The notes beneath the pieces were generated by a model. The model had not been told where the DNA came from. It ran no database searches and worked only from the letters and a program-made list of their open reading frames with translations. 23,883 nucleotides of DNA from Ettlia oleoabundans. Lineage: Eukaryota > Chlorophyta > Chlorophyceae > Chlamydomonadales. Below, piece by piece: positions 25 through 23,883 of the stretch (positions are counted from its first letter, which is position 1; each line of letters begins with the position of its first letter). The stretch lies in NCBI GenBank assembly GCA_019693395.1, contig JAAMXP010003827.1, positions 1 through 23,883 of the forward strand, given 5' to 3'. A program made the position numbers and the translations under genes.

Positions 25-204
25 CGCTTTGGCACGCATATGGCTGCGGTCGGGCTGGACTGTATTGCACCTGGCCGGTTAAACCTGCAGTCCATTGCTT
101 GACGTGTTGCTACCGTGATCCCGCATTAGCCCACAGCCCGGCCCCAATTCTGCCTGCTCTTCTCACCCAAAATGCAACATGCCGCTACTCTCCTCTCCAT
201 GCAG

Positions 205-3179: not shown

Positions 3180-4888
3180 TCAACCAAAGCCCTCCACTGG
3201 GCCAATAGTGATGTAGTGTATCTGATATCGCTTCCACTCCCTGCCCGTGCCATGGCCACTAGCACCTTGCTGCAAGATGCTCTCTCCGCCTTGCAGCATT
3301 GGTGCCCCAGCTGCATTCTCTTGTTTGTCCTGCTGCTGCGGCTGCTCTTGGCCACCTGCTGGCTCTATTGCCTGCTGCGCTGGAGCTGCCTGGCTGGTGG
3401 TCACCCCCATGCTGCTGGCCGTGCCCACTCGTGCCCCTGCTGCTTCTAATACTGCCTGTGTCATTTCGTGAGCAACGTCCCTTCCCTCTTCCTGTCCCTC
3501 TTCCTGCTCCTCTCCCTCCTCCACCACGCTGGCAATCAGCAGGTGCTTGCGTGCTTGATGTGAACCACGGGTGGCTGAAGCCAACATGGCGGGCAATACA
3601 GGCTGGTCGTACCGCATCAGCCGCACGCAGAACTGGGCGTGGTACAGCGTGGGGTCCCCAGGATACACCAGGTAGTCAGCTCCAAACTTGCTTCCCCCAG
3701 TTAGGCGGTAGCTGCAGCAGAAGGTCAGGCCAGCAGCAGGAACAATAATGAGGTAAGCGCACCTTGAGGGAGTAGTATGGAGCAATGTAGAGGTTGTGGC
3801 AACCAAAGGGCCATCGCGGCAACAGCAATGAGTACTACAGTAACAGCTGCTGCCGTGTACTACAACACAAAAAGCTGACAAGCTGCGCTTCTCCTGTTAG
3901 CATTGTTTGGCAGGGAACCTGGACGGAGGGGCAAGGGGAAACTTACCCCCTAGCATGCAGGTCTCGGAAAACCCCGTAGCGGTGCCGTTCTTCCTGTGTG
4001 GCTGGAAAGTTCCAGGCTACCGCTACCTCCCCAGCTGCGCCTGCTGCACCTTCTGCAACTGTTGCCGCCTCCCCCTCTACTGCACTGCCGTCGTTGGTGG
4101 CTGTGTAAGTGACTGTGTGTGTGCCGTTGGCTGCAGCGGCCTCAGCAGGAGTGGTGGGAATGGTGAAGGCTGCGCCACGGGTCAAGGCTTCCCGCCAGGC
4201 GGGCTCCTCTTGTGTCTCTGCAGCTGCCTGCTGTGCCGCGTCCTGCATGGCAAGATCTCCATCTGGATCTCCCTCCCCCTCCTCTTCAGAGTCATAGTAC
4301 TGGAACCGGCTGGAGGCTGCTTCTCGTCCCCGCTTCCTGCTGCCTCCACCCGCTAATGCTGCCAGCGCCAATGCAAGCTTGCCCCTGCGCAACGTCGGTT
4401 GCAGCTCCCCCCAGTTGCGCTCCAAGGCCAGTGTTACTTCCTCAGGACAAAGCTCAAGTGGCAATCCATGCACCGCGTTCTGCTGTTTGAAGGCTGCGAT
4501 GGGAGCAGCGAAATTGGGGTCAATCAGCAGGAGGCTAGGGAGCTGTAAGGAGGAATGGGAATGGCGGAAGAAAGGCAGCCGCGTGTTTGGCAGCTGTCAA
4601 TTTCTATGGTGGGAATTGTGATGCCTGTCAGTCAAGTGCACCCCAGCAACATACAGCAGCAAGTTACAAAGCTGCGGCATCGTACCCGCCACGCCGCCGA
4701 CCATCGCGCCCACTATTCCACATTCCAGACGCAACCAGTGAGCCACTGCAGGTATTACAGCGCATTATAATGTTGTGAAAACAACACGTTGGGTGTGGGG
4801 GGCGGCAACACGTTAGGCAGCGGCCAAAATCACCGTCGGCATCCCAGACATAGCCTTTGTTTCCTAATATGTGTATAGCCGCTTTCAT
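3180..4888 (-). CDS. SEN34: tRNA-splicing endonuclease catalytic subunit SEN34/TSEN34
   Basis: Exons (minus strand) are 4888-4834, 4745-4686, 4493-3947 and 3711-3180, joined in phase to 397 residues. SEN34 cuts the 3' splice site of intron-containing nuclear pre-tRNAs within the four-subunit TSEN complex. The N-terminal domain carries YVWDAD, then LRLECGIVGAMVGG, then KQQNAVHGLPLELCPEE, which follow the yeast Sen34 layout including the spacing from GI-G to QQN. A disordered acidic and Ala-rich linker (about residues 100-200) follows. The catalytic nuclease fold has SKFGADYLVYPGDPTLYH and ARKHLLIAS. The inferred triad is Tyr237, His245 and Lys276, with spacings of 8 and 31 equal to the human triad. 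The protein ends VEGFG, resembling the yeast C-terminal WAGFG. An unusual Glu/Gln-rich insertion separates the Lys region from this last strand. The start is the first ATG in frame upstream of YVWDAD; this short first exon is the least certain part. Confidence 0.88.
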
Positions 4889-5278: not shown

Positions 5279-8080
5279 ATGTGCCCCATCGCAGTTTATG
5301 TGGGCAACTATGAGTATGATGCGGACGAGCGGGAGCTGGAGAGGACATTTGAGAAATATGGGCCCGTGGACCGTGTAGAGTACAAGTCCGGTATGCCGCG
5401 GCCCCTAGTGGCTCCTCAGTCACGTGGCAGAGCAGCTAGCGAGACGCAGGCCCCGTCTCCCTTGCCGCGTTGATCGCTGACCCGCCGCCACGGCTCTCTA
5501 CCCTGCGTCTGCCATCCCTGCTCTTCCGCACCCTCATCGGCTCCCATGCTGCTACGTTCCTACCCACAATGGCGCCCGCCTGCGTGCCCCTGTCCGTCAC
5601 CCTCCGTCATCATGTGGCATCACACGCCATCCGCATCAGCTCACCGATCACCTATGGCTGCGGTGTCAACTGTCACCTTTGGCTGCCTGGCATCGTGATT
5701 CGGCTCTGTCGGCTGACCCCACGAACCTATGCCGTCATCATGCCAACCCTGTCGTCAGTCTGCCGCGCTGCTGCCAGTCAACGAAAGTCACCGAAAACCG
5801 CGCTTTTGACCTCCGGGCTTCACTCACCGTTGCTCCCTGTCGACATCCATACCGCGGGTGCTGACAGCCAGCTGAGACAAATTCAGAGTGCCCACCGACT
5901 GCATGGTGCCAGTCCAAGCCCGGACAATCAACAACTTAGTTGCGCCACCTTCTCCCGGCCACCGCCCACATGTGGCCGTCACCTACGCCAACCCCCGGCC
6001 TTACTACCTGCCCCTCCCTGCCCCCTTCCCTCGCCCTGCGCCTCCCAACCTTCAACTCTTTCCAGGCTTTTGCTTTGTGCACTATCAGGACAAGCGGGAT
6101 GCTGAGGACGCCATCCATGCACTGGACGGGTAAGCAGCACCCAGCAATACCTTGGGCAGCTGCCATCGCTGTCAGGGTGGCTGAATCAAGGTGGCTATTC
6201 CATGCTGTGGCGCCCGGCTGCAACTGCTTTACTGACAGGGCTTGTAGTGTATCTGGGTGGTGCAGCAATGCTGCATTGGCCAGTCGTTTGGCTGTGAAGT
6301 GCGTGTTGCACGTGGCGTTTGTCGGCCTGCAAAGCACCCTCCTTGCTTGCTTGGCCAAGCATCTCTCCTGCTCACTTGCTCTTCTTTCCTACATGACATT
6401 TTCGTGCGTTCCCATTCACTATCAAGCCTACAGATATCCCTGTCCTCTACCGTCTTTCTTTTAACCCCTCCCCCATCACCTCTGGCGACAGAACCACAAC
6501 TGTACCACCACTGCGCCTTGCAGCCGCGAATGGGGCCGCATGCGCCGTCGCCTGCGTGTGGAATTTGCCAAGAATGATGCAAACGTGCGGGAGCGGGAGA
6601 AGGCCCGCCGCAACAGCGCAGAGCCTAACCGCACGCTCTTTGTGGCTGGGTTTGACCCCCGCAACATTCGCACCCGGGACATTGAGAAGGCTTTTGAGGA
6701 GTTTGGGCGCCTGGTGGTGAGTTTTACGACGCATTGAAGCAAGATTGCTCTGCCAGCCATTTTTGCCTGTTCTTGCCCACTCATGTTGCATGTAGTTACA
6801 CACCTGGGGCAGGAACGAAGCAGCAGGTCTGGGCTGGACCTGCCTTTGTGCTTGCCTTCGCGTGCCATCCAGTCTGCCATCTTGCCATGCCGCCTGCATG
6901 CATGCCTTGTTTTGATGTTGTGCCCATGAACATTGATCTACTTAAATGCTGCCGGCCTTGTCCCGACTCCTGCCTCGATTTTGCCCGTCCACGCTGCGTG
7001 CCGTTTCCCTGCCTCGTACTCGCAGCGGTGCGAAAACATCGTTATTTGCCTCCATCATGGCCTTGCTACCTTGCCGCTGGCCCCCTTCCCCCAATCCCGC
7101 AGCGCTGCGAGATCAAGAAAACTTTCTCCTTTGTGGAGTTTGAGCGGGTTGAGGATGCAAAGGAGGCGTGCGAGCAGCTGCACGGCTCACGCATACAGGG
7201 CCGGGAGATTACGGGTAAGACGTGGGAGGAAGTGGCCCGGAAGGAAAGATGGGAAATGACAGCTGCAGATGCAGGGATAGAGGAGTTTTGGTTGGATTGA
7301 TGGGTGGCCACAGGGTGAGGGTGCTGTGTAAATAGCGGCAAAGGTAGAAGCTACTGCAGCAGGCTTGGGAGATCCCCTGGGTGCCCTGGTGCTATTGCCT
7401 GCGACTGAATTTCGTGTTCCTGCACCGCCTTGCCTGCAGTGGAGTATGTGGTGAACAAGAACAGCCTGGGCGGTGGTTACGCCGGCGGTGGTTATGGAGG
7501 CGCCTACGGTGGCGGTGGTGGCTATCGTGATCGTTTCGAGGACCGTGGCGGGCGGGGCGGGTATGAAGACCGCTTCCGTGCCCGCTCTCGCAGCCGCAGC
7601 ATGGAGAGGCGGCGGCGCAGCCCATCATATGACCGCAGCCGCAGCCCGCGCCCGGTTCGCCGCAGCCCCTCACCCGTACGCCGCAGCCCCTCACCAGACA
7701 GGTGAATGTGTGTAGCTGGGGTGTTTTTGTATGTATCATGCAGTTTATTGCACCTAGATATGGCGATTTGCGTGTGGATGGACAGTTGTACATGTTGGCT
7801 GCCTACCCGAACTGGAGCCTGCCTAAAGAGTTGCTGCTGCTGCCTCCGCACCCCTTGCTGCTCATGCCACTGATGTCATTCAGCAGCATCATTGCCTGCT
7901 CATGTCTGACCCAGATGCCAAGCTGTCCAGCCCTAGCCCTGCCTCTGCATGCTGAGGATCTGTGGTTTGCTGGCCCATTGCTGACCCTGCAGGCGCCGTG
8001 CCCTCACTCGCAGCCGCTCACCGTACAAGGGTCGCAGCCCGCGCCGAAGCCCCAGCCGCTCTCGCTCTCCTAGGCGTTGA
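5279..8080 (+). CDS. RS31: Plant-type SR splicing factor, RS subfamily (RS31/RS40-like)
   Basis: Six exons (5279-5390, 6066-6129, 6524-6716, 7103-7214, 7440-7701, 7993-8080) join in phase to 276 residues. All introns are GT-AG. RRM1 (about 4-75) has RNP2 AVYVGNY and RNP1 SGFCFVHY. RRM2 (about 96-165) has TLFVAGF and KKTFSFVEF. These match the two-RRM plan of plant RS31/RS40/RS41, including [14 protein letters not shown] and the C-terminal edge VEY. After RRM2 come a Gly/Tyr-rich segment (about 172-200) and an RS domain with a 21-base direct repeat encoding VRRSPSP, ending RSRSPRR. The protein should bind pre-mRNA and recruit the spliceosome in the nucleus. The ATG at 5279 puts RRM1 at the very N-terminus, as in the family; an in-frame ATG at 5228 would add 17 residues. 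Retaining intron 5 gives a stop at once. Confidence 0.9.
7658..7699 (+). repeat. 21-bp direct repeat in the RS domain
   Basis: Two adjacent units with 21-base spacing both encode RRSPSP in exon 5 of the RS31-like gene. The copies share a 17-base identical core. Such repeats are how RS domains commonly grow and shrink. Confidence 0.6.
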
Positions 8081-8453: not shown

Positions 8454-9346
8454 TTAGCTGGTGTTTGTTCCAATGATGATCTGCAGAGGAGGATGTCAGC
8501 AGATAATTGGGCAAACAACGTAACTGGCAGGATGGCATGGATTGCCTTGTTGGAACTGATGGTCTACTCTTGCGCCTATGCACGTCCTTAACACCTGCCT
8601 ATTCCTTCAATGACTCGCAACTTGAGCACACCACACACATCATCAAGCACCACGCCCCACCATGAATGAGCTGATTGAAAAGAAGCACTGCCTTACTTGG
8701 TTGATGGGGATGAAAATTACTTTCACCACAAAACCAATCAATCCCACTGCAAAGAAGCCAATGCCCGTCAGCCGCGCCACCCTGAAGAACTCCTTCTGCA
8801 AATCCGGGAGAGTGGGACAGGCAGGGGACCGGCAATGCTGCAGCGCGATCAGCCATTAAGGTGCCCATGTCGGTGCTTTGGCGCAAGCTAGCCGCAGATT
8901 ACTAAAATGCAGCAGGCCAGCGTGTTGCGCGCGCTATTGTGCAACCACTGCTGCTGTATACAAGGGTAGGCCACATGACCCGCCAATGCTACCGCCCGCC
9001 GCCCGACTGCTGGGGAACTGTGCTGCTAAAGTTGGCGCGCCCGTAGACTTCACCAACCCTCAATCCGGTGTTCGTGCAGGCCATGAAATCAGGCAGCCTT
9101 GCCACCCAGCACACAAACAAGCAGCGGAACGGCGCGAGTGATGGCCGCGTCTGGGCCCGATCGCGGGCTGCAACCCTCACCCGGTCAGGTTTTTGACACC
9201 TCTTCACAAGCCTGCAGCGGAGAGAGCGGAACGACACACCGATGGGAGCAAATTTGCGTCAAGTTGGCCACCGGTGAGCCGGGACGGTCGGCGCACCTGA
9301 CAGAGTTCTTCGCAAAGTCCTTGACCGTTTCTCCGAACTGATCCAT
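8454..9346 (-). CDS. SEC61G: Protein translocation channel subunit Sec61 gamma
   Basis: Four small exons on the minus strand (9346-9297, 9211-9181, 8795-8697, 8480-8454) join in phase to 68 residues, the normal length for Sec61 gamma. The N-terminal amphipathic part reads MDQFGETVKDFAKNSVRLVK, followed by RCQKPDRKEF, the conserved signature of the family. A single tail-anchor helix (about residues 37-62) contains GIGFFAVGLIGFVVKVIFIP and is followed by INQIIIG. The protein clamps the two halves of the Sec61 alpha channel in the ER membrane and is needed for co-translational secretion. The 31-base second exon and the 27-base last exon are too short for ordinary ORF searches and are easily missed. 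All introns are GT-AG. Confidence 0.93.
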
Positions 9347-10468
9347 GGTTGGCTGCACCGAAGGGGGTGTAACCGTGCAGGAGGTTGCTGTGTGCTAGCA
9401 GGAGGGGGGCGCTCTAGAACAGCAAAAAGAGAGCGAGCAACCTTTATAAAGCTCACCACTGGGCTCGATGCCGGGTGCCCATCCAAGAAAATCCAGCTGG
9501 CCGCTGCGCCGCCAAAGCGCATGAGACGGCGGGTACTGCTGCCAAGATCTATTAGCGTTATAATGTGTTGTGGTGATGTATGAAGTTGGTTGTGCAAATT
9601 TATGGTCAATTTAACCAGCACGGCATTTGCTAATGTTGTCGATTCATAACCACTCTCCGGGCAACCTGTGAGGATTTACAACTTCCACTTGCATCCACAG
9701 CTGTTGGCAAGCCTAATCGACAAACAAACCTTGTAATGTATGCGCATATTGCCAGAATAGAAACGCAATAGCGCAGCCTCTCTTCGCGCACTACAAATAC
9801 ACAATAAGATACATCCGCTTGAAATGCACGGGAAAACATTGTGCAGGGCAGTGAACCATTGGGCTCTATGTAGGGACAGGGAAACAACGGCTACAAAAAA
9901 AGCAATGTCAAACTGAGCCCAGCACCAGGACAAACAGCGGCAGCCATGGGCTACCCTCAGCACACTCAAGGCAGGGTGCGGGATGCATTTTTCATGGATA
10001 TGCAAAATTTGCCGACGGAGAGAAAAGCCCTAGGGCTGGCTTGGATGGTTGCAAGTACAGGCCAGAACGGAAAAATTGGGAAAAGGTGTGTGTGGGTCTC
10101 ATTTGACGAAGGGCAGGATTGGGCTTAGGGCGCTCAACTTGGCACCTGGGGTGGCCAGCAAGACGACCATTCCGCATGGAGTCCCAGTAGATAAATTTCA
10201 TAAAGACATCCGTCTGCAGACGAGACAGCACTGGACCTGCACAAAACAGCAGAGCAAGCTGGTGTTTGCTGCTAGGAATTATGTTACAAGTCCGTTCGCT
10301 TATGACGCGGGCGGCAGGATGCGGGGTGGTGAACCCCAACAGGCCCTTCACCCCCAGACCTACGTTCAAAGCCCCGGTTAGCACGCCCGATATTGTAAGA
10401 GAAGCGTTCAACAGCGGTGCAAGCCTGCTCACTTAGACAACCCCGAGATATCGCTTGCGACCCATACC
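9347..10468. other. Region without a supported gene
   Basis: This stretch contains the SEC61G promoter next to 9347 and a relatively AT-rich part (about 9560-10000) that looks untranslated. On the minus strand several open segments between 9990 and 10430 have G/C-rich third positions in places, such as a frame ending LPFVK and a stop near 10107. I could not join them into a coherent protein, so no gene is called. Confidence 0.4.
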
Positions 10469-10856
10469 TTAGCCGCTGGCCTGCTCCGCGGGCCGGTGCA
10501 CGCCTGCTGGTAACGTCGCGGGGTCCGGCACCGAGGTGTGGGTGCTGAAGATGGAGTATGACCAAACCACTGCACACAGTGCAGACGCAGCCATGATAGT
10601 AAGCCTTGCCTTATCCATGATACCTCGAAGTATTTCGTGCCCCGCAAACAACCGTAATCCACACACTATGCACGGTCCTGCTGCGGGTGCTATGCTCCGG
10701 TAGATGGGTCTCGCCAACGATGCTTCGAGTTAAGCCATGAACCCAAGCTACCTGCGGGGTCATCTCAAAGTTGCCCGTTCCGGCATCCTCAAACTGAGGA
10801 AAGCCGGGCATCGCGTTCCGCCAGATTTCAAACTGCTGTAAAGAAGCGCTCGACAT
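10469..10856 (-). CDS. Possible small single-pass membrane protein, exon junction unresolved
   Basis: Exon 1 (10856-10752) has a good start context, gccATG. It encodes 35 residues beginning MSSASLQQFEIWRNAMPGF and ending at CAG|GTAGCT. A second open segment on the same strand, ending at the TAA at 10469-10471, encodes one hydrophobic helix (LTIMAASALCAVVWSYSIF) and then a Pro-rich tail ending EQASG. Both segments have coding-like third positions. The obvious acceptors do not keep the phase; the only phase-0 acceptor seen is an unusual AAG just before position 10609. The family is not recognised. The start codon overlaps that of array copy A on the other strand, so one of the two starts may be wrong. 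Confidence 0.35.
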
Positions 10857-13647
10857 GGCCGGAAGCCTAGCAGGTAAAGTATTACAAAGCCATCTTCAGC
10901 CTCCGAGGCGCGCAACTGCCCTCTCGCGCTTACCGCACAGTCTCAATGGTTCCCACCCCCCGCTGCACAGGTCCCGCAGCGGCCGCCCTCCTGCTGCTCC
11001 TTGTGGCGGCTTGTAGCGTGACTGCCCACGCTGCCAGCGACTGCCCGTACACCAACACCAGCGAGCCCTTCCCGGCTGGTGGAATTGGGTACTTTTGGGC
11101 CCCCTTGTGAAGGACTACCAAAACCCAAACATGATAGATATGGTGCCAGATTGGCTTGCCAACGCCTTTGAAGCCAGCAAGCTTTTCACAATCAACACGT
11201 GAGCAGCCATGCATTTGGCCAGAGACGGGGTTTTGTGTTAACCCTTGGCCTGCGCCTCATCGGGGCTTAGATGTAAGGTTACCATTTGCAGGGCAGCAAG
11301 CGACTGCTTACTCCCCCAAGCGCACGTACTCACAGCCGTGTTGACATGCCCAACAGCCACATCACTTCAATTTCTGCAAAATGCAGGTCCATGAGCTTTG
11401 GTTCCTATGAGTTGAGCCGTCTGGCAGATTTGACAAGCCCCTACTCAGCTGGAGCTGTCGCCTACATTCTCACCATCCCCGAAGGGGAGGTGTTTGGGCA
11501 GGATGTGGTGGATGCCCTGCTCCCTGCAGATGATGCTGGGTGCCACAGCTTTGCCTGCTGCTGCCGCATGTGTCTGATCAACCAGTCAGAAACAAGAGTC
11601 ACAGCACCCTCCCACAGATGTAAGCCACAAACATTGTTGCAGAGGTAAGTCAGTTCCTACGCCAGTATTTCATGCCAGAGAGGGCAGCCACATCTCCGCC
11701 GTCTTCCCCTCAGCCAACTTTGAGGTAAAGACTGCCCCGGGCAGAACAGGAACCAAGCTAAACATGGCGGCAGGGAGTTTGTAGTCTTGCCAACTTGCAT
11801 GCACGGGTGTGCTACTTGCCAGCAAGGACCCTTTCACCCTTCCTCGTGCGCCCTTCAACACATTTCAGTCGACCCAGTGCTTCCAGCCATCTGGATATAG
11901 TCCTCGCAGCACTATCTTGATGTGCCAACTTGCTACATGGCTGTGCAGGGCATGGACATCTCCCAGCCTATCGCATTTGTGGGCAACACCAGCGTAAATA
12001 CTGCCTATTTCGGTCTGGGCTGCCAGCAGCAGGACCCAACAGTATACACTCTGTCCACCAGCAGCCTGCCCTCGGACTTCTCACTCGGTAGCTACGATGG
12101 TGAGCAAAGACGTGGACTCGCCTCTGCTAGCGTCATAACCGCATATTGGTGTTGGCTCGCCTGCTGTGGCGCTGAAGTATGGCACGTCACAGGCGTGCGC
12201 TCACAACCCCCACGCTTGCGGCAGCTGGCAGTACTCATAGTTACTTTATGTTCCCAGCGTCAATTGTGGGTTGCAATGCTGGTAGCCACGCTGTTTCTTT
12301 GGAATCTGGAAAGAGGGGATAGGCGGAAAGTGGTACCTAGTACGCCAGTCGAGGCATCAACCTTGGCTGGAACTAGGGAGGGAAAACCGCCGAAGGGTAG
12401 CCTACGACACCGCTGCTTCCAAGGGGCCCCAAGGGGCGAATCCTGAACGCTGAAACCAAAGACGTAGTATGGCGGAGCCTGCACCGCCTCAGCAGTTGCG
12501 GTCTAGGTGATAGCGCTTCCTCAATCCACACCCAAGGGCGTAAATTTCCCTTTTTCCCTTTGGGTAGCCACGCTGCTGTCTGACTGCAGATGTTATTGAT
12601 GTTCTTCCCAGCCTGGAGGCCTGGCTCGATCGGCCTGCCAGCGTGATGGATAACATGAGCGCTGGGTCAACATTTCAACAGGCAAGCCTGCCATGTCGCG
12701 CCAGTTTATCCATGCAACCGCCCACCTACATGTACAACAGTCCAGCAGCAACAGAAGCATGCGGCATATGGTGCATCTCCATCCCCATGGCATCACAGGG
12801 ATGCGCCAGCTCAAGCAGAACATGGCTGTTGTTGTCTAGCTGCTTCAGCCAGCTGGTATGTCCTTGAGCATGTAGGGTGCAAACAGACATGATACCAACG
12901 AATGCTGTGTTAACGCAAAATGATCCATGTCTTGAAACAAACATATGGAGCTGGTGTGGGGGAGTAATCTGAATCTTACCTGCTGCCTGCTGCAGTACTG
13001 ACCCCTGGTTGTGAGGGCCACAGGGCAGCCCATCCCCGTGTTTGTCAAGTTGTTTACCCACAGAACGCCGACAACCTGTCTGATGCCAAGAAGGGTGCGC
13101 TGCAGCAACTTGTTTACACTCCTTGCTAATCCCCCTGCTGCTGCGTGTTTCACTGATGCCTTCCCCATATCGCTGGTCTGTCTCAGTTTGGTTGGTGCTG
13201 CTCATGTTTCTCTGTAAGCTTGAACAGCACGGGCACCAGCTTTAGCATCAGCTGGCTTGTGGGAGATGAGGAGGTGGCTCGTGAGGCTGGCCTTGATGCT
13301 GACTTGGAGGAGGTTCATGCTGACCTGGCACTGGTGCTCAACAGGCTCAACGACACCCTGTATGGTGGTGAGCAGCTGAACATAGAAGGGAGATACTGTG
13401 TTGACTCAATGACCACCATCTTAGAGTTGAAGAGCACAGGCACGAGCATGAACCAATTATCCCCTGCATATCACGCTTTACGTCATCAATCGGCAGTCGC
13501 TTGCACTGTTCTGCCTCCGTTCTTGCAGCACCACCCGCCCCCGCCCCCAACGCTGCGCCAACCAGCTCGGCTATTGCTGCTGCGAGCGCTCAGGCAACGT
13601 TGCTGGCACTGGTGCTGTCACTGCTTATGTCCACTTGGTGGGCATGA
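10855..13647 (+). pseudogene. Array copy A: decayed secreted, GPI-anchor-like protein gene
   Basis: The nine equivalent exons lie at 10855-10873, 10971-11198, 11387-11535, 11643-11724, 11949-12099, 12590-12681, 12996-13094, 13219-13367 and 13529-13647. Compared with copies B-D, one base is missing in exon 2 near 11075-11082, where FPADWNW is expected, giving a stop at 11108-11110. The exon 3 donor GT is CT at 11536-11537. Exon 4 is one base short near 11664-11672. Exon 7 has TGA at 12999-13001 where the others have TGG, and it also lacks one base. The exon 8 acceptor is AAG with a lost base. The final exon is intact and ends with TGA. A shortened 54-residue product with only the signal peptide is the most that would be made. 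Some single-base gaps could be sequence errors, but the nonsense codon and donor change together make decay likely. Confidence 0.8.
12682..12995 (+). other. GC-AG intron 6, copy A
   Basis: The intron begins GCAAGC after CAG instead of GT and ends CTGCAG. The same donor occurs at the matching place in the three other copies, so it is not a mutation private to the pseudogene. Confidence 0.75.
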
Positions 13648-14374
13648 CACCTGTGAGAAGAGAACGTTGAACGCGCTACATTCGCCAATCTCACTGCCTG
13701 AACCGGCACCGATGGGTTGCCTGCCTTGCTATCAACCTTTTGGTTGCTGTTGAACCCAGCTGACATATATTATGCCGCGGTAATGTGTCTTCACATGCCA
13801 TTTTGTCGATCAGCGCCGCTGCCCGGGCCAACCAGGAATGGTGATGGGTGCACAGGGAGGGAAGCATGAGCGTGCTGCCAAGGGGCAAAGTGTTCGCCTA
13901 TCTCCCTCAATTACTTCCAATGCTCTGAGAGTCGCTGCATCTGCCGAGCATTGCATCCGGCTTTGTACAAGCAGACTGACGGATCAGTTGCGGAATACTG
14001 CAGCTGCGGCCGCAACGCCTGGCGATACATGCCTGCATGTGAGGTATTGAACGGTTCCTCAACCTTTTAGAGGTTTATAAGGCCTGATATGAAGGTGGGG
14101 GAGTGACGAAAAGCAAACAGGGATTCCCGCTCACAGTTGCATGCAAAGCAAAGCCCCTACCAACCAGGCGAGAGGTGACCCGCCACCCCTGCTGGCAGCG
14201 CCCTGCTGTGCATGAACCGGAGGCCTACAAAAGCCGCCGAAGTCCCTGTTGTTTGCGCAATGCATTGTAAGCTAGCCCACGCAACTTGGACAAGTTTTTG
14301 GGGCACAATTGAAGGCCTCTTGGTTCAAACCGCGGCATAACACCGCCCGGACCCTGCGTTCTTCGCCGCTCGAG
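13648..14374. other. Spacer between copies A and B
   Basis: No coding exon is supported in these 727 bases. A TGTAA at 14266-14270 is far from the stop of copy A. The right end should hold the promoter of copy B and includes the conserved box at 14322-14334. Confidence 0.45.
14322..14334 (+). promoter_or_regulatory. Conserved GGTTCAAACCGCG box upstream of copy B
   Basis: This 13-base box lies 53 bases before the start codon. The same box stands 54 bases before the start of copies C and D while much of the surrounding sequence differs between B and C/D. Copy A has no clear equivalent. Confidence 0.5.
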
Positions 14375-17245
14375 ATGGCCAGAAACCCCGCAGGTGCGTG
14401 ACAAAGGGATTCCGGCAGCTGCGCAACCTACCGGCTTACGTGCATCTGCTGAGACTAACCCGCCTCCTTCGCTCCCCCACCCGCCGCTTCCGCCACGTCC
14501 TGCAGTGGTCGCCATCCTGCTGCTTCTTATGGCGGCCTATGGCACGCCTGCACATGCTACCACTGACTGCTCCAGTGCCGAAACCAATCGGCCCTTCCCG
14601 GCTGATTGGAACTGGGTACTTTGGGGCCCCCTGGTGGATGATTTTGAAAACCCAAACATGATGGATATGGTGCCAGGATGGCTTGCCGACGCCTTTGCAG
14701 CCAGCAAGCTCTTCACAATAAATACGTGAGCAAGCGGTTGGCAGGTTTGCTTGTTGATGTTGCAGGTGCTTGAGCAGTGTGATGTGCTGCCTGCTGCATG
14801 CACACGTGCAAAGCAAGGTTCTTCTACCGGCCAGCGGCGGCCTTTCTTTATTGTTGGGCCCCGTCTTAGACCTGGTGCATGCCGTGTGCTCACATGATTG
14901 GGAGCCAACAAGCGTACAAAGTCATTGCAAACTGCAGTTCTGCAACCTTTGGCTCCTACGAAATACGCCAGCTGGCAGACCTGTTGAGCCCCTACTCCCT
15001 GTCAGCTGTGGCCTACCAGCTCACCGTGCCTGATGAGGAGGTGTTTGGGAAGGAGTCATTAGACGAGCTGCTTCCCGCGGACGATGGTAAAGTGCTGCGC
15101 CTAGTTGACTTCTTTTGTCTGCATAATCTATCAATCAGTCCTGGGCTATATAGCATTGGACACACAGTTAGGGTTGGGCCAACAGGGCTGATGGTTCAGG
15201 AGTCGGGGCTGCGAGTAGTGCCTGCCCTGCTTCCTGTTTTGAAACCAAACGAAGGTGCAAAGGGAGTAGTTGGCCTGTCTGCCACTGGTTTTTGAGAGCC
15301 GAGCACCACATACTGGATTGTAATCTATCGATAGCACAGTCTGTATTGCCAGCTGCATTGCTTGCAGCTTGTCTTCAAACTCCCCAACCCCACTACCTGC
15401 AGAGGTGAACGTTATCAAGCGCCAGTTTTTTCATGCCAGGGAGGGCAGCCACCTCTCCGCCATCCTGGGATTTGTTGATTATGAGGTGGGCGGCCACTGC
15501 GCTCTCACTGAAAGCCTTTTTGAGGATGTGTGTCTGGGCTTTTGGCGGCGGCTGCTAGTTGGATGAGATGGTGTCTGCTGGCTGGCATCAAACATAATGT
15601 GCGTTTATCTCATGCTGCACCCCTACCGCCACCACCATCCCGACCTAGGCGCTTGCCCAACGAGCGGAATGCGAAGTCGAAACCTCAGGCTTGCTGTTTG
15701 TGGGTGTGCAGGCCATGAACATAACCCAGCCCACCACTGTTGTAGCCAACTCCATTGTCAATTTCGCTTACTATGCCTTGGCCTACAATAGTGTGGGCTG
15801 CCAGAGGCAAGATGCCACAATGTTCACCTTTTCCACCGCGCCTCTGCGCCCAGATTTCTCTCTGACAAGCTATGGTGGTGAGCATGCCCACAAACACTGC
15901 TGCCGCCAGCAGCCCCAGCCGCTGCATTGCACAGGGCAGCACCCCGTCATGCTGCAGCTTGGCGTGGCTTGCCGTGCCTTCAGGCCTTCATGGCTGCAAC
16001 AGCCTCGAAGGCCTTCCTAGCTTGGCCCGCTGATGTCCCTCCTCGTTCTCGCTCATGTGAAACTTGGCCACGACTCTTCTGCAACCGACTACTCGGCACT
16101 AGAGTCAACAGAACCTGTGCTGCGCAAATTAACTACTTTCTTCCCACCTCAGTCCCGTCCTCTGCAACTCTTGTTTCTGAGCCGGTTGATACGGTGCAGA
16201 CGTGGTTGACGTGCTTCCCAGCCTGGAACCCTGGCTGGATGGACCTGACAGTGTGTCAAACATCACCATCCCCGGTATTGCGTACTACCAGGCAAGCCTG
16301 CAAGCCGACGGGTGCTTGACAGTCAAGTTGTTGCCTTCAGCATGTTTGACAATGTCTGCAGTTCATTCCCTGCTGCTTCCTGGCTGAGCAGTTCAGTCAA
16401 GCCACCAATGCTGCACACCTGGCTGTCGTCAATGCTTAGCCAGCACAGTGCACTCACTTGGCTTCCTGCTCATTGACTATTATGTTGCAGTACTGGCCCC
16501 TGGTTGTGAGGGCGACAGGGCAATCCATCCCCGTGTTCGTCAAACTGTCCACCACGCTGAGCACCGACAGCCTGTCTGATGCCAAGAAGGGTGCGGTGCT
16601 GTGGCTCTGCTTCTAATCTGCTGTCGGCAGCCCTGGCCAAGATTGCTTGTCCTTCTGTTGTGTAAACCGGGAGCTCCTGGCTGCTTTTTTTAAATCCCGA
16701 GGCTTGAGTTGGCTTCAGCGCTAGCCCCTGGCGGTTCCAACATGTTGCCGCTAACCAGTGCTAGTATTTTTACATGTTGCCGTGCATCAATTGCAGGCAT
16801 GAACAGCACAGGCACTGGCTTTTCCATCGCCTGGCTGGCAGGGGATGAGGAGGTGGCTCGCGATGCTGGCCTGGAGGCTGGGGTGGAGGAGGTGTATGCT
16901 GACCTGGTTGCTGTGCTCATGAGGCTCAACAACATCATGAACGGGGGTAAGGGGCTGAAAGGCAGGGAGGGAAGGGAAGGCAGCACAGGGGAAGGGCTCT
17001 GCATAAGGTACTCCGTCCACCACCACTAAGCTGAGAGGTACTGATGCAACTGCACACCGCACATGTCGCTTTTACGCTGCTTGTTGAGGTTTTGAGCGCT
17101 CACCTGCACCAGTTTGTTTGTTCTTGCAGCGCCACCTGCCCCCGCCCCCGCCCCTGCATTAACCAGCTCAGCAATCCCTACTGCTGCGGGCGCTCCAACG
17201 ATGATGATGCTGGCATTGGTGATGGCCCTGCTTACGCCAGCTTAG
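14375..17245 (+). CDS. Array copy B: secreted, probably GPI-anchored protein, unknown family
   Basis: Nine exons (14375-14393, 14506-14725, 14938-15086, 15403-15485, 15712-15877, 16200-16291, 16491-16590, 16797-16946, 17130-17245) join without a stop to 364 residues. A signal peptide has the core VVAILLLLMAA and a likely cut near THA-type small residues (AHA|TT). Shared family landmarks are FPADWNW, FTINT, FGSYE, NITQPTT, DVLPSLEPWLDG, YQYWPLVVRA and MNSTGTGF. Sequons include NITQ, NITI and NSTG. The end is a Pro/Ala linker, TSSAIPTAAG and a hydrophobic tail (MMMLALVMALLTPA) with no charge, which is the pattern of a GPI-anchor signal. The protein would sit on the cell surface or wall. Intron 6 has a GC donor. 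No catalytic motif was recognised. Confidence 0.82.
16292..16490 (+). other. GC-AG intron 6, copy B
   Basis: The donor reads CAG|GCAAGC and the acceptor TTGCAG|TACTGG. Splicing here is required to keep the frame between YYQ and YWPL; no GT donor nearby gives the same junction. Confidence 0.78.
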
Positions 17246-17564
17246 TGGGCTTGATACCGACGACACACACCAGTTAAATGCCCCAAGCCGTCCTTGTGTT
17301 GCCACCTCCCACTTTAGTTGTTGTTGCACGTTGATGGTGTTATGCTGCGCCGCCGTACCCTTTCACATATGCACCCCTGCCTCACCCGGCGCCGCACTCG
17401 AACATTGCACATACATGCATAACTACCGATGGATGGCGTTTGTGGCTGCGAGGTCAGACAAGGGTTGTTTCAGCCGCTTCACCACAAGCCTCTCCCAAGC
17501 CTGGGAAGCGACCGGCATGATGCTCGCTCTTTGCTTGCAACATGCTTTGATTACTCGTTAGGGT

Positions 17565-17569
17565 TGTAA
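17565..17569 (+). terminator. Candidate TGTAA polyadenylation signal, copy B
   Basis: The motif lies about 320 bases downstream of the copy B stop codon. At the matching position before copy D the sequence is TATAA, so the motif is not conserved in the array. Confidence 0.3.
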
Positions 17570-17702
17570 TACGCTTGTGAATTAGATCTGACGCAATCTA
17601 GCGGACATTGCGCGGGAAATGCATGCAAGTAGGTATAGCCTTGTGCCGGGGAGGTGCCATGCCACCACCGCCATGCTAGGCATGCTGGTAGCTGGCATGA
17701 AA

Positions 17703-17714
17703 ATGCCGCGGCAT
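17703..17714. promoter_or_regulatory. Palindrome ATGCCGCGGCAT upstream of copy C
   Basis: This perfect 12-base palindrome begins 170 bases before the start codon of copy C. The same palindrome occurs 170 bases before copy D. It could bind a dimeric regulator, but it lies in a block that is duplicated as a whole, so conservation alone does not prove function. Confidence 0.4.
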
Positions 17715-17818
17715 GCCGGAACATCCCCAACATCCCCCAGTGCTGGTTCGCCGTTTGCATTGCTATCGCGGCTTGCAGGCAACGCAAACGAGTCCTCCAG
17801 GCACAAGTTACCGCCCGT

Positions 17819-17831
17819 GGTTCAAACCGCG
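17819..17831 (+). promoter_or_regulatory. Conserved GGTTCAAACCGCG box upstream of copy C
   Basis: The box is identical to that of copy B and stands 54 bases before the start codon. It is probably in the core promoter or the 5' untranslated region. Confidence 0.5.
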
Positions 17832-17872
17832 TGATTGAAAACCGGCGAACTCTGCGTCCAGTGCCACTCGAG

Positions 17873-20729
17873 ATGGCCAAGAGCTCAACAGGTGCATGAG
17901 TGTGAGAACTACTGCAACTTCCAGCCGCCCGGCCCCTCGAACTGCCGGGCACCAACCCGCCGCCCGCCCCTTGCGCAGGCCCCGCAGCGGCCAGCCTCCT
18001 GCTGCTTTTCCTAGCGGCGTGCAGTGCGCTTGCTAGCGCCGCCAGCACCTGCCCATATTCAAACACCAGCGAGCCATTCCCAGCAGCTTGGAACTGGTTG
18101 ATGATCGGCCCTGAACCCTTGCCTCAAATCCCAGACGTGGACGCACGCATGCCCGGCTGGCTGGTCGACGCTATGCAAGCCAGCCAGCTGTTCACAATCA
18201 ACACGTGTGTTGAAAGCTTTGTGCTGTCATGTAGAGTATATCAAACGATGCCATGAGTGCAGCAAACTCGTAGGCGTGACGGGTTGCTCTCCCTGGGCTG
18301 ATACCTGCCTTGCTCCTCCCATGGCCTGGCATGTAGCTCCCTCACTTTTGGCTCCACTGAGCTCGTGCCTTCCATTCAGCTTCCTGAAGGGCCCTACGCT
18401 CAGGTTGCGGCTGTTTATAAGTACACTGTGCTGCCAGAGGGGTTGTATGGGCAGGAAGTTATCGACTCACTCATCCCTGACGACGGTGGGTGGGGTGTTG
18501 TGCCCCAAGGTCGCGCCAGCCAGCAACATGCCTTGTAACTCTTCCTTATCTCCATAAGGATGTGTGTTTTGGTCGTGTTTCCAACCAAAATTGTGCGCTG
18601 CCTTTTGTGACGATTAAATGCGGTAACCTGGCATGGACGTGATGCTTCATGCAGGGACGGGACTGATTTACTTCCTCATGCAGCCAGGCACCTACCTGTT
18701 TGGCATCTTTGGAAATGCTGACTACCAGGTTTGAAGCACGTCGGCAGTGCTGTTGCATTTGGTTCATGTTCCTGCATGTTTGGGGGCAAAGGTCCCCCNN
18801 NCCCCCCCCCCCCCCCCCCCCCTCTAGTATCTGACCAGTGCTGCAAATAAATGGGCTGTTAGCGCTCTCCTGCATGTGGGATCCAACAGCCTCCCATCCA
18901 GGGTACTGAACGAACTATGCTGTGCACCACGGACATGTCCTGGCATGATGGCATGCTCATGAAGCTGCTCAGACATTGCACAGAAGGCCGTCCGTGGTGA
19001 TTTCGCTGCTCGCGTTGCACACCAGCAACACAACATTCCAACAATTGGTGGATGAAATTTCTCTGCCCCATCCCTGAATTCATGCTTACAGGGCTTGAAT
19101 GTGACGCAGCCAATATCCACGGTTGGCGACTCCGTGGTCAACATTGCCTACACCGCCTTCTACTGTGGCGAAAACAGTGCGAGCGCAATCACTCTCTCCA
19201 CATCCCAGGCGCCCGCCAACCTGGACATGCTCAGTTTTGAAGGTGAACACAAGGTTCAGGGTGCCCTGTGTTTAGCTGGGATTGACAAGTCATCACACAG
19301 TGATGTGCCAGTGTGCTCGTTGAGTTGATGGCATCTGTGAAGCGAAGCCCATATGCAGGGGACCGCACTTGGAGTTGCATCGCAGCAATACACTGCCTCT
19401 AGTGCAGATCCTCAGCCCCTAATGCCCTTGCAAGGCTTGCCTTGATGGTGGTAAGGAGCGTAATGCCACTGCTACCTATGTGCCTCCTGCCCCTGTTGCT
19501 GGTTGCAGACTTGTCTGAGGTGCTGCCCACCCTACCAGCCTGGATGGGAGATCCCGACAACCTCACCCTCAGCAGTGACTACCTCAGAACTGGTGGAGCA
19601 TCAGTCACCCAGGCAAGCTGGAAAGCAACTCAACGCCTTCCCAGCAAGATAGTCAGCTGTTGCTGCTCTCTGTTCCATAAATTTGCCATTCCTGATGCTG
19701 TGCTTGCCTGTAGCTGGCAGGGGGCTGCATTTCACACACCATGTGCCCACCTGCTGCCTGCAGTACTGGCCGTTGATTGTGAGAGCCAGCGGGGAGCCCG
19801 TCCCTCTGTTCATAAGGCTGCAACGTTTTTTCAGCACCGAGGAAGACGCCAGGCTGGGTGCGCGCAGCATTGCTGTTCCCAGTTTGTCTTCTGAGTTGGC
19901 AACACCCATGCCTGCATTGTGTGATTGATGGGTTATCCGGGCGCAGGGTGCGGTGGAATCAGGACATCCGGCTGACAAGCCTGCAGGGCCCTGAGGTGCA
20001 GCATCACGATTCGCCTGCCCCTGCTTGTGTGGTTATGTGTGTTTCCATAGGGCCCACTAATTGCTTGAGGGGGCCGTTGTGTCAATTTTTTTGGCTGCAC
20101 CTTCAGTATCCCTCGCAGCTGAGTCTTAGCTACCTGCTTTTATCGCTGGCCCGTGCCCTTGTTTCCTACTTGGCAATATCCTTCTATCAGGAGTGAACAG
20201 CACGAATGCCGTACTTGCCGTCACCACCTACTTTGTTAATGCGGCGGAGGATTTCCAGGATGCTGGCCTTGATGCTGACTCGGAGCAAGTTCATGCTGAC
20301 CTGGCACTAGTGCTCAACAGGCTCAACGACACCCTGTATGGTGGTGAGCGGCTGGGACCACATGGGGGTGGCAATGCATCCTGGGGACAGTTGGCCTCTG
20401 CGTGAGGTACTGCCGTCCACCACCATCAAATAAGCTGAGATACGTTGACGCAACAGCACACCACATGGTGCTGTGCACTGCTAACCGAGGTTTGTGGCAG
20501 TCACATGCACTTCTTGGCCTCTGTTCCTGCGCGTGTCGCTTTCTCACTGCTTGTTGAGTTCTTGGGTGTCACCTGCATCCATTTCTGTGTTGCTGCAGCG
20601 CCACCTGCCCCCGCTTCCGTCCCCGCCCCTGCGCCAACCAGCTCGGCTGTCCCTGCTGCTGCGGCCGGTCCGATGATGGTGATGATGGCAATGGTGCTAG
20701 CCCTGCTTACGCCAAGTTGGTGGGCTTGA
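17873..20729 (+). CDS. Array copy C: secreted, probably GPI-anchored protein, unknown family
   Basis: Exons 17873-17891, 17979-18204, 18337-18485, 18655-18728, 19092-19242, 19509-19612, 19764-19857, 20191-20343 and 20599-20729 join in phase to 366 residues. The signal peptide has the core LLLLFLAAC and a likely cut at ASA|AS, followed by CPYSNTSEPFPA. Exon 4 is five codons shorter than in copy D. Sequons include NTSE, NVTQ, NLTL and NSTN. The conserved cysteines are in CPYSN and in YCGEN. The tail is APPAPASVPAPAPTSSAV followed by a Met/Ala/Leu-rich hydrophobic stretch ending SWWA, consistent with GPI anchoring. Intron 6 has a GC donor. Intron 4 contains a poly-C tract with three undetermined bases. 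The exon 3 acceptor is TAG. Confidence 0.82.
18794..18822 (+). repeat. Poly-C tract with a three-base gap (N)
   Basis: A run of C is interrupted by three undetermined bases at 18799-18801 within intron 4 of copy C. The true length of the tract is unknown, so the window coordinates after this point are approximate by the same amount. Confidence 0.85.
19613..19763 (+). other. GC-AG intron 6, copy C
   Basis: The donor is CCCAG|GCAAGC and the acceptor CTGCAG|TACTGG. Phase 0 is kept, and the position is the same as in the other copies. Confidence 0.78.
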
Positions 20730-20774
20730 TACCGACACATGACATACCCGCCACTTCAAGGCCCCCTTTCCTGT

Positions 20775-20812
20775 TGCTGTGACACAGCATTTGTCAATGC
20801 TGTGTCACAGCA
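20775..20812. repeat. Perfect inverted repeat, 17-bp stem with TGTC loop
   Basis: Arms 20775-20791 and 20796-20812 are exactly complementary around a four-base loop. It lies 46 bases after the copy C stop codon, in its probable 3' untranslated region. No transposon ends or flanking target duplication were recognised. Confidence 0.8.
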
Positions 20813-21196
20813 TTACACTGCCCTGCCTCACTTTCTCCAAATAATTCCATGTGCCTCACCCGGCTTAGCACCGCCACTTTGCGCACAAATACACGCATGC
20901 GTTACTACTAATGGATAGCGTGCATGGCACGCTGCTGCACTGTGAGGTCAGAGAGGCGTGTTACAGCTGCTCCACCACAAGCCTCTCCGAGCCTGGAAGC
21001 GACCGGCATGATGCATGGTCTTTGCTTGCAACATGCACTGTGCCTTGATCACTAGTCAACATTATAATACGCTTGTGAGATGGATCTGACGCAAATAAGC
21101 GGACACTGCGATGGAAATGCAAGTAGGAGCAGCCTTGTGCTGGGGAGGTGCCATGCCACCACCGCCATGCTAGGCATGCTGGTAGCTGGCATGCAA

Positions 21197-21208
21197 ATGC
21201 CGCGGCAT
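21197..21208. promoter_or_regulatory. Palindrome ATGCCGCGGCAT upstream of copy D
   Basis: It is identical to the palindrome before copy C and stands at the same distance of 170 bases from the start codon. It lies in the same duplicated block. Confidence 0.4.
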
Positions 21209-21312
21209 GCCGGAACATTCCCAACATCCCTGCACCGCTGCTTCGCCGTTTACATTGCTATCGCGGCTTGCAGGCAATACGAACGAGTCCTCCAGGCACA
21301 AGTCACTGCCCG

Positions 21313-21325
21313 TGGTTCGAACCGC
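21313..21325 (+). promoter_or_regulatory. Conserved GGTTCGAACCGCG box upstream of copy D
   Basis: This version has G instead of A at the sixth position, which makes the first ten bases a perfect palindrome. It stands 54 bases before the start codon. The resemblance to a tRNA B box is noted, but no tRNA is present. Confidence 0.5.
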
Positions 21326-21366
21326 GTCATTGAAACCGGCGAACCCTTCGTCCGGTGCCTCTCGAA

Positions 21367-23842
21367 ATGGCCAAAAGCTCGGCAGGTGCGTGAGTCTGAG
21401 GACTACTGCAACTTCCAGCCGCCCGCCCGCTCGAACTGCCGGGCACCAACCCGTCGCCCGTGGCTTGCCGCCCGCGCCGCAGGCCCCGCAGCGGCCGGCC
21501 TCCTGCTGCTTTTCCTAGCGGCCTGCAGTGCGCCTGCTAGTGCCGCCAGCACCTGCCCATACTCCAACACCAGCGAGCCTTTCCCGGCTGATTGGAATTG
21601 GTTGATGTGGGGGCCCTACCCGCTCACCTATGGCAGCCCAGACGTGCAGGCACAGACGCCTGCCTGGCTGACAGACGCCATGCAAGCCAGCCAGCTGTTC
21701 ACAATCAACACGTGCGCAACATCCTTTCGCTTAAACGTTGCTGGATCAATTGGGCAGCTTGCAGCGGCGGTGGTTGATGGGTCCAAAGGGCATGCAGGCT
21801 TGGCACAACACGTACTTTGCAGCTGTTGCTCCCTGGTCGTGCCTTAGCACCACATTGCCTGGATCACCGTCCTCCTGCAGGCTCGTACCTGAGTTGCATT
21901 TGCATGTATAAGATGAATTTCCTCTCCCCACATCATGCCGCGCATGCAGCTCCCTCACCTTTGGCTCCTTTGAGCTGAAGATGTCCTCACAACTCCCCGA
22001 AGGGCCCTATTACAGCGCGGCATATGTTTACAACAACACCGTACTGCCAGAGGAAGTGTATGGGGAAGATTTGGTCGACGGGCTTATCCCTGATGACGGT
22101 GGGTGGGGTGATCCCTCTCCGGTGTGCCGTTTGTTTCCGGTCTGTGTACCTGTGTTTTGCCACAAAAACAGTGCGCACTGGTACCTCCCTGCACACACTG
22201 TAAACTCTGTGGCGCTGTTTGGTTGTTGGCTTTACTTGTCCCGTGTTGGTGTTAGCAGCAGGTTTGTTGTGGACACCATGAAGCTGCTGACTTACAAGCC
22301 ATGCTGCCTGCAGGGACAGGGTTGGCAGAGCTTAAGAAGGTCTACCTCAACATGCTGCCAGGCAGCCACCTGCTGGGCATCTTTAGTGCCGCAGACTATA
22401 CGGTGTGAGGCAACTCCCCTGCGGGCTGAAAGCCTGCGCTGCTGCCCTGGCTGCTGCTGGGGGAGCAGCGGGTGCTGTTGCCGCTACCTCGCATTTGGCT
22501 GTCGGTAGCGATGCTGCTGGTGGTGGTTCCGGGGGTTGATGTGGCGTCCCACCTGGGCTACCCAAGGATCGGTACCGCTCCAGTCCCCACCAATTCCGCA
22601 ACGTGCCCTCCGCGCCTTTCTACATTCCTGCATTGCTTCAACAACAATGCCGCATCCTATACCCATTGCACCTGTGCAACCGTCCCCACCTCACACACGC
22701 AGGGCATGAACCTGACCCAACCCACCACCTTGGTTGGCGACTCTGTGCTTGACATGGGATACACTGGGTTTGGCTGCGCCAGCCAGCAGCCCCGGGCGCT
22801 CACCTTCTCCTCCACCCAGATCCCCGACAACTTTTCAATGCAAAGCTTTGAAGGTGAGCACAAGGCTGCATCTGCTGCGCCGGGCCCGCCAGGCCCAGTC
22901 CTCCATGCGTAGGCGAAACACCTGTACATGTTGCGGCACTGCTGACAGTGTGGGTATCACCTTGCTGCTGCATTAGATGCTGCTGCTGGTCTTGTTGGCA
23001 TTGGCGAGCCCTTGCTGGTATGCCCCTCATGCTTCATGTGCCTGCTGCATCTTGCTGCCCACCCCCTGTGCAGACATGATGGAGGTGCTGCCCAGCCTGC
23101 CAGCCTGGATGGGCAACCCAGACAAGGTGGTCATCAACGAAACCTCCCCGGCCGCCGCTATCATCTATCAGGCAAGCTGCAGTGTTGTGCACCTGTGCAC
23201 ACATCTGCACAGTAGACCTCGGCTGCAGGATAGTGCACGGCCCTACTATTGGCAAAGGCTGCTGTATGTCTCTACCATATCAGACGATTGGGTAACATAA
23301 CGTTGCGCCTGAGGCTTCTCCAATACAACCGAATTCCTGCCACCCTCACCTGCTGGGGGGTTTTGCTTACTCCAAACCTGGGTGCCCCTTCACCTTCACC
23401 TTGTTCCCCACTGCCCTCTGCCGGCAGTATTGGCCACTTGTTGTGGAGGCCAGCGGTGAGCCCATCCCGCTGTTCCTGAGGTTCACGTGGATGTTTGACA
23501 GCGAGGAGGAAGCCAGACAAGGTGGGTGGGTGAGTGGGTGGGTGAGTGTGTGACAGGGAGACAACATAGCTACCACTTTGTTCTCCTTGTGCCACCAACG
23601 CGTGTGCTGTCCTTTTACCCCCAGGTCTTGTTACAATTGACGAATTCCTTTCCCGATTCCCTGTGCCCCTCGCCAAAATAAGATCGTAGGTGTAAACAGC
23701 ACAGGAGTCACCATCGATGTGTCCACCTGGTTTGTCGATGCGGCTGAGGATTTCCAGGAGGCTGGCCTTGATGCTGACTCGGAGCAAGTTCATGCTGACC
23801 TGGCACTGGTGCTCAACAGGCTCAACGACACCCTGTATGGTG
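21367..23842 (+). CDS. Array copy D: secreted protein of the same family, cut by the window end
   Basis: Exons 21367-21385, 21483-21711, 21950-22098, 22314-22402, 22703-22853, 23074-23171, 23428-23521 and 23690-23842 give 327 residues in one open frame. The ninth exon with the expected Pro/Ala linker and anchor signal lies beyond the window. The signal peptide resembles copy C (core LLLLFLAAC, cut near ASA|AS). Landmarks are CPYSNTSEPFPADWNW, FTINT, FGSFEL, GMNLTQPTT, VLPSLPAWMGNPD, YQYWPLVVEASGE and GVNSTG. Sequons include NTSE, NNTV, NLTQ, NETS and NSTG. The exon 7 donor lies in a GT-rich repeat, and the exon 8 acceptor is TAG in a poor pyrimidine context. Intron 6 has a GC donor. Copy D is closest to copy C in the coding sequence and the promoter. 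Confidence 0.8.
23172..23427 (+). other. GC-AG intron 6, copy D
   Basis: The donor is TATCAG|GCAAGC and the acceptor CCGGCAG|TATTGG. It is the fourth independent case of the same non-canonical donor in the array. Confidence 0.78.
23521..23552 (+). repeat. GTGGGTGGGTGA-type simple repeat at the exon 7 donor of copy D
   Basis: Short GGGT units with GAGT steps cover the 5' splice site and the first 30 bases of intron 7. Several overlapping GT dinucleotides give alternative donors, and the G-runs could form a quadruplex in the RNA. Confidence 0.6.
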
Positions 23843-23883
23843 GTAAGCGGCTGGGCGGGTTGGGTCGTGCATGTGTGGGTGGG

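What the first reader, a model, noticed from the sequence alone, without database searches (positions are those of the whole stretch)
10855..23883. Tandem array of an unrecognised secreted, probably GPI-anchored protein family
Four paralogs with a constant 3.5-kb period, nine conserved exons, signal peptides, many N-glycosylation sequons, a conserved Cys pair and (in A-C) a Pro/Ala linker plus hydrophobic C-tail. The design is that of a cell-surface protein under dosage or diversifying pressure. I could not match the landmarks FPADWNW, FTINT, TQPTT and YWPLVV to any family I know.
Basis: partly seen in the sequence, partly recalled or inferred. Interest (0 to 1): 0.85.

Follow-up and report, generated by a model that had tools for sequence, protein, structure and literature searches.

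The report
Chlorella tandem genes for surface protein
A green alga close to Chlorella variabilis carries at least four head-to-tail copies (one of them broken) of a gene whose product looks secreted and lipid-anchored to the cell surface, and which matched no known protein family here.

Summary
The array is real: four head-to-tail units start at 10855, 14375, 17873 and 21367. Copies B and C are complete nine-exon genes (364 and 366 aa); D is open through exon 8, where the contig ends. Copy A is a pseudogene: shifted frame in exon 2, TGA in exon 7, no GT at the exon 3 donor.
B, C and D have a signal-peptide-like start, 4-8 sequons and one conserved Cys pair; B and C end in a Pro/Ala linker and hydrophobic tail. 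The genome encodes Gaa1 of the GPI transamidase.
dN/dS is 0.36-0.48: constrained genes, no overall diversifying selection. Gene conversion seems to homogenise unit ends.
Pfam and a 5.8-billion-protein collection gave nothing at E up to 10; NCBIfam and PDB gave only weak matches judged chance. The collection holds Chlorella proteins but would miss distant relatives. Best reading: an orphan, apparently lineage-restricted GPI-anchored surface glycoprotein family evolving by duplication, conversion and loss.

The parts
10855..13647 (+). Copy A, decayed paralog: exon remnants 10855-10873, 10971-11198, 11387-11535, 11643-11724, 11949-12099, 12590-12681, 12996-13094, 13219-13367, 13529-13647
   Evidence: Frame shift in exon 2, in-frame TGA and one base fewer than B in exon 7, no GT at the exon 3 donor position
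14375..17245 (+). Copy B, complete gene, nine exons: 14375-14393, 14506-14725, 14938-15086, 15403-15485, 15712-15877, 16200-16291, 16491-16590, 16797-16946, 17130-17245; 364 aa
   Evidence: Open spliced frame, consensus splice sites, dN/dS 0.46-0.48 against D and C
17873..20729 (+). Copy C, complete gene, nine exons: 17873-17891, 17979-18204, 18337-18485, 18655-18728, 19092-19242, 19509-19612, 19764-19857, 20191-20343, 20599-20729; 366 aa
   Evidence: Open spliced frame, dN/dS 0.36 against D
21367..23883 (+). Copy D, exons 1-8 open (21367-21385, 21483-21711, 21950-22098, 22314-22402, 22703-22853, 23074-23171, 23428-23521, 23690-23842); no exon 9 before the contig end
   Evidence: 327 aa open; contig length 23883
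17979..18049 (+). Copy C exon 2 start: hydrophobic stretch of the signal-peptide-like N-terminus, up to conserved Cys31
   Evidence: 15-residue hydropathy windows up to 2.37
20599..20729 (+). Copy C exon 9: Pro/Ala/Ser linker and terminal hydrophobic tail (GPI-signal-like)
   Evidence: Tail hydropathy windows up to 2.18; same design in copy B 17130-17245, up to 1.98
19613..19763 (+). Intron 6 of copy C, GC-AG type; the same donor CAG|GCAAGC is present in A, B and D
13283..13378 (+). 3' part of copy A exon 8 and a few bases beyond, 95% identical to copy D, while the 5' part of the exon is B-like: probable conversion tract
20224..20356 (+). 3' part of copy C exon 8 and a few bases beyond, 94% identical to copy D: homogenised tract
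   Evidence: C-D dS 0.12 in the last block against 0.50-1.71 in the other five

Best explanation
A tandem gene family, found at one locus only in this assembly of a Chlorella species, encoding an acidic, N-glycosylated, secreted protein of about 365 residues. Its C-terminal tail is probably exchanged for a GPI anchor, leaving a roughly 300-residue ectodomain on a Pro/Ala stalk at the plasma membrane or wall, most likely as a surface or wall glycoprotein (adhesion or recognition). The array grew by tandem duplication (probably unequal crossing-over), is partly homogenised by gene conversion at the unit ends, diverges in the middle under purifying selection, and has lost one member (A). Shown here: array, gene models consistent with splice signals and selection, mosaic pattern, decay of A, Gaa1 in the genome. 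Inferred: secretion, glycosylation, GPI anchoring, surface location. The adhesion or recognition step is a guess by analogy.
For: Spliced models with consensus sites and shared phases; third-position excess in C-D and dN/dS 0.36-0.48; hydrophobic N-terminus in B, C and D and C-tail in B and C, sequons, Cys pair, acidic chain; Gaa1 above the Pfam cut-off in the same genome; conversion segment with 14 of 14 informative sites, an extreme reached in 1 of 1000 shuffles; SR-protein neighbour 93% identical to C. variabilis and placed beside it in a tree with moderate support.
Against: No transcript, proteome or predictor evidence. Copy B's sequons are not above chance. D's tail is unseen. Copies B and C differ in the last residues of the tail (TPA against TPSWWA). 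dS is about 1 in B comparisons, so those ratios are rough. The mosaic could in part be slow evolution of the end of exon 8 with B diverging, though the low C-D dS there argues for conversion.
Confidence: 0.6

Rival explanations
1. A secreted enzyme or ligand-binding protein of a known fold that has diverged beyond sequence recognition; the tandem copies give dosage.
For: Conserved aromatic motifs (F-P-A-x-W-N-W, Y-W-P-L-x-V) and purifying selection fit a folded functional domain; weak PDB matches exist (best E 0.027, to SiaP).
Against: No Pfam match for B, C or D at E up to 10; one NCBIfam match at E 0.19 in one of three members; the SiaP match is not significant and covers 94 of 299 positions.
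Confidence: 0.25
2. Single-pass type I membrane protein, or a soluble wall protein, rather than GPI-anchored.
For: The C-terminal hydrophobic stretch could also act as a membrane segment; GPI predictors could not be run.
Against: The tail ends shortly after the hydrophobic stretch with no basic residue behind it, and small residues precede it, as in GPI signals (recalled rule).
Confidence: 0.2
3. Not functional genes: a decaying repeat array or assembly artefact.
For: Copy A is broken; the contig ends inside the array and copy C intron 4 holds three N.
Against: B, C and D are open over eight or nine exons with dN/dS well below 1; the copies differ too much to be duplicated assembly errors (exon identities 0.48-0.86).
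Confidence: 0.04

Closest known systems
GPI-anchored cell-wall proteins of green algae, e.g. those predicted in Scenedesmus obliquus AS-6-11 (PMC7590803; passages seen)
   Same: Signal peptide and GPI-type tail; a surface role in flocculation is suggested there
   Different: The four candidates singled out there carry fasciclin domains; no Pfam domain was found here
Ser surface-antigen genes of Tetrahymena thermophila (PMC4136848; search listing and start of abstract seen)
   Same: Family of polymorphic GPI-linked surface proteins
   Different: Cysteine-rich there; two conserved cysteines outside the signal region here, and no evidence here for antigen switching
Algal non-specific lipid transfer proteins (PMC9832785; start of abstract and passages seen)
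   Same: Secreted multigene family; GPI-anchored members are named in a reference title there
   Different: Defined by an eight-cysteine motif; two conserved cysteines here

Membership tests
Fasciclin (FAS1) GPI proteins | FAS1 domain by profile | tested here: not met
   0 Pfam families at E up to 10 for B, C and D
Non-specific lipid transfer proteins | Eight-cysteine motif | tested here: not met
   Two conserved Cys outside the signal region
GPI-anchored surface proteins (works like) | N-terminal signal peptide | tested here: inconclusive
   15-residue hydropathy windows over 2.0 in B, C and D; no SignalP available
GPI-anchored surface proteins (works like) | C-terminal GPI signal | tested here: inconclusive
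   Linker and terminal hydrophobic tail in B and C, D's not seen; no GPI predictor available
GPI-anchored surface proteins (works like) | Host has GPI transamidase | tested here: met
   Gaa1 family, 91 bits against cut-off 28.6; only this subunit was searched
Diversifying surface-antigen families | dN/dS above 1 in exposed parts | tested here: inconclusive
   No block above 1: 0.19-0.40 in six blocks of C versus D; exposed parts are unknown and site-level tests were not run

The most novel reading that the evidence does not exclude
A Chlorella-restricted recognition protein with a new fold (mating, symbiont-host or virus-attachment surface), kept as a tandem set whose unit ends are homogenised by gene conversion while the middle exons diverge.
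Probability: 0.12. Interest if true: 0.65.

Novelty: new member of a known kind. Interest (0 to 1): 0.38.

Why it matters
Surface proteins of Chlorella are, to my knowledge, little characterised, although they face viruses, ciliate or animal hosts and flocculation technology. A compact four-copy family with a clear architecture and no detected relative gives a testable candidate. Tandem orphan secreted families are, however, common in eukaryotes (general knowledge), so the find is modest until fold or function is known.

Tried and rejected
Internal repeats suggested by the phase 1-1 exon groups (2+3, 4+5, 6+7, 8): no BLASTP match at E below 1 in 12 module pairs (6 of C, 6 of D), rejected. A tRNA-like stretch upstream of the copies: no tRNA by ARAGORN and no Rfam match at gathering score in the window, rejected. 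SiaP-like periplasmic binding protein: best PDB profile match E 0.027 over 94 positions, rejected as chance. Relatives elsewhere: 68 stretches of viral contigs and 52 of genome contigs matched one of two short peptide patterns, none confirmed by tblastn. Exon 8 fold: two helices, mean pLDDT 65.5, pTM 0.36, too weak to use; no fold search was run. Identifying the assembly through a paper giving 32.9 Mb: 0 papers. Literature searches listed no paper on this family in the titles and abstract starts shown: 20 of 56 papers, 20 of 58, 15 of 20, 10 of 18, 5 of 5; passages of two were seen.

Full report
Setting. The window is the whole of contig C1001 (23,883 bp) of a 32.9-Mb assembly in 1,230 contigs. 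The SR splicing factor encoded at about 5290-8080 is 93% identical over residues 1-162 to a Chlorella variabilis protein and 91% to one of C. vulgaris, and a 12-row tree puts it beside C. variabilis with moderate support (94/88, not starred). The organism is therefore probably a Chlorella near C. variabilis; the species was not identified, and this rests on one protein.

Observation. Repeat search shows four-copy families spaced about 3.5 kb. From the four-way comparison I placed exons by hand and tested them by script. Starts lie at 10855, 14375, 17873 and 21367. B and C give complete frames of 364 and 366 aa over nine exons; D gives 327 aa over eight exons before the contig ends. Intron 6 has a GC donor in all four copies. 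Whole-genome searches with C, B and D returned 26, 25 and 24 exon-level matches at E up to 10, all on this contig. A DNA search with D's exon 2 found three places and missed copy B, so DNA searches here are not exhaustive. The last 284 bases match three places, all on this contig, so no continuation to the right was found in the assembly.

Copy A. Its exon 2 is one base shorter than in D and shifts frame; exon 7 has TGA where B, C and D read TGG and is one base shorter than in B; the exon 3 donor position holds CT, not GT. It is a pseudogene unless these are sequencing errors.

Coding evidence. Pairwise dN/dS (Nei-Gojobori) is 0.358 (C-D, 321 codons), 0.477 (B-C, 352) and 0.460 (B-D, 316); dS is 0.70, 1.01 and 1.10. 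Six blocks of C-D lie between 0.19 and 0.40. Differences by codon position are 78, 57, 124 (C-D), 140, 118, 172 (B-C) and 128, 104, 163 (B-D). The genes look real and constrained. Overall diversifying selection is not supported; selection on a few sites was not tested.

Exon-intron contrast. A gapped comparison of exons and introns did not separate them: aligned introns scored as high as exons (for example C-D 0.75-0.90 against 0.70-0.91), because that alignment was free to gap. It is no evidence either way; the coding case rests on frames, splice sites and dN/dS.

Mosaic. From about 500 bases upstream through exon 2, C and D are 75-91% identical in sliding windows, and 95-97% late in exon 8, while exons 3-7 are 62-70% identical. 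C-D dS falls to 0.12 in the last block against 0.50-1.71 elsewhere. At 193 sites where C equals D and B differs, A agrees with B at 117 and with C/D at 76; the last 14 in exon 8 all agree with C/D, and a segment as extreme arose in 1 of 1,000 shuffles. A run of nine C/D-like sites also lies in exon 2. This fits gene conversion; slow evolution of the end of exon 8 with divergence of B is a weaker alternative.

Protein. Hydropathy is high at the N-terminus of B, C and D and at the C-terminus of B and C. Sequons: C 6 (P 0.006), D 8 (0 of 5,000 shuffles), B 4 (P 0.14), against about 2 expected; three alignment positions are shared by all three. Two cysteines are shared outside the signal region. 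The chain is acidic (D+E against K+R: C 34 and 9, D 39 and 9, B 39 and 16) (all). No SignalP or GPI predictor was at hand. Gaa1, a GPI transamidase subunit, is encoded in the genome. A model of exon 8 alone gave two helices at low confidence.

Relatives. Pfam: none for B, C and D at E up to 10. NCBIfam at E up to 1: one match at 0.19 in one of three members. PDB by sequence at E up to 10: 6 matches for C alone, best 0.13, and 17 for the profile, best 0.027, judged chance. In 5.8 billion proteins two profile searches scored the 7,997 candidates sharing most words, none at E up to 10. As a positive control the same collection returned Chlorella, Micractinium, Parachlorella and Auxenochlorella relatives of the SR neighbour (26 proteins at E up to 1e-10). 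The limit of this test: B and C share only 4 five-residue words, and B shares 13 of its 297 with C or D, so a relative as distant as B is from C could be missed, as could genes mispredicted in those algae. The claim is therefore: no close relative found in the annotated proteins held for those species.

Mechanism. Most likely the product enters the ER, is N-glycosylated, receives a GPI anchor in exchange for its tail, and stands at the surface on its Pro/Ala stalk. Whether it adheres, recognises or builds the wall is not decided here. A role of GPI-anchored wall proteins in flocculation has been proposed for Scenedesmus (PMC7590803, passages seen), but the candidates singled out there have fasciclin domains.

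Verdict. A sound but modest find: an unrecognised secreted GPI-type protein family in tandem, restricted as far as tested to this Chlorella lineage, with one dead copy and good evidence of gene conversion.

Noticed in passing
5290-8080 (+), approximate: SR splicing factor gene with two matched RRM stretches and an RS tail; 93% identical to a C. variabilis protein; RS31/RS40-type by the names of hits.
   Followed up: partly
3180-3896 (-), perhaps to 4600: tRNA-splicing endonuclease subunit gene (tRNA_int_endo domain, E 2.3e-13), probably the Sen34 type (recalled). The upstream frame 3943-4596 gave no Pfam match.
   Followed up: partly
8650-9347 (-), approximate: Frames reading MDQFGETVKDFAKNSVR and KEFFRVARLTGIGFFAVGLIGFVVKVIFIPINQ look like Sec61 gamma (recalled), the left neighbour of the array.
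   Followed up: no
130-690 (+): Arg/Ser-rich reading frame near the left contig end, no Pfam match at E up to 0.1.
   Followed up: no
18799-18801: Three N in a poly-C run inside intron 4 of copy C: a small assembly gap.
   Followed up: no
17515-17900 and 21013-21390: Upstream regions of copies C and D are similar (72% to 95% by segment, 95% over 114 nt), so promoters were probably duplicated or converted with the genes.
   Followed up: partly
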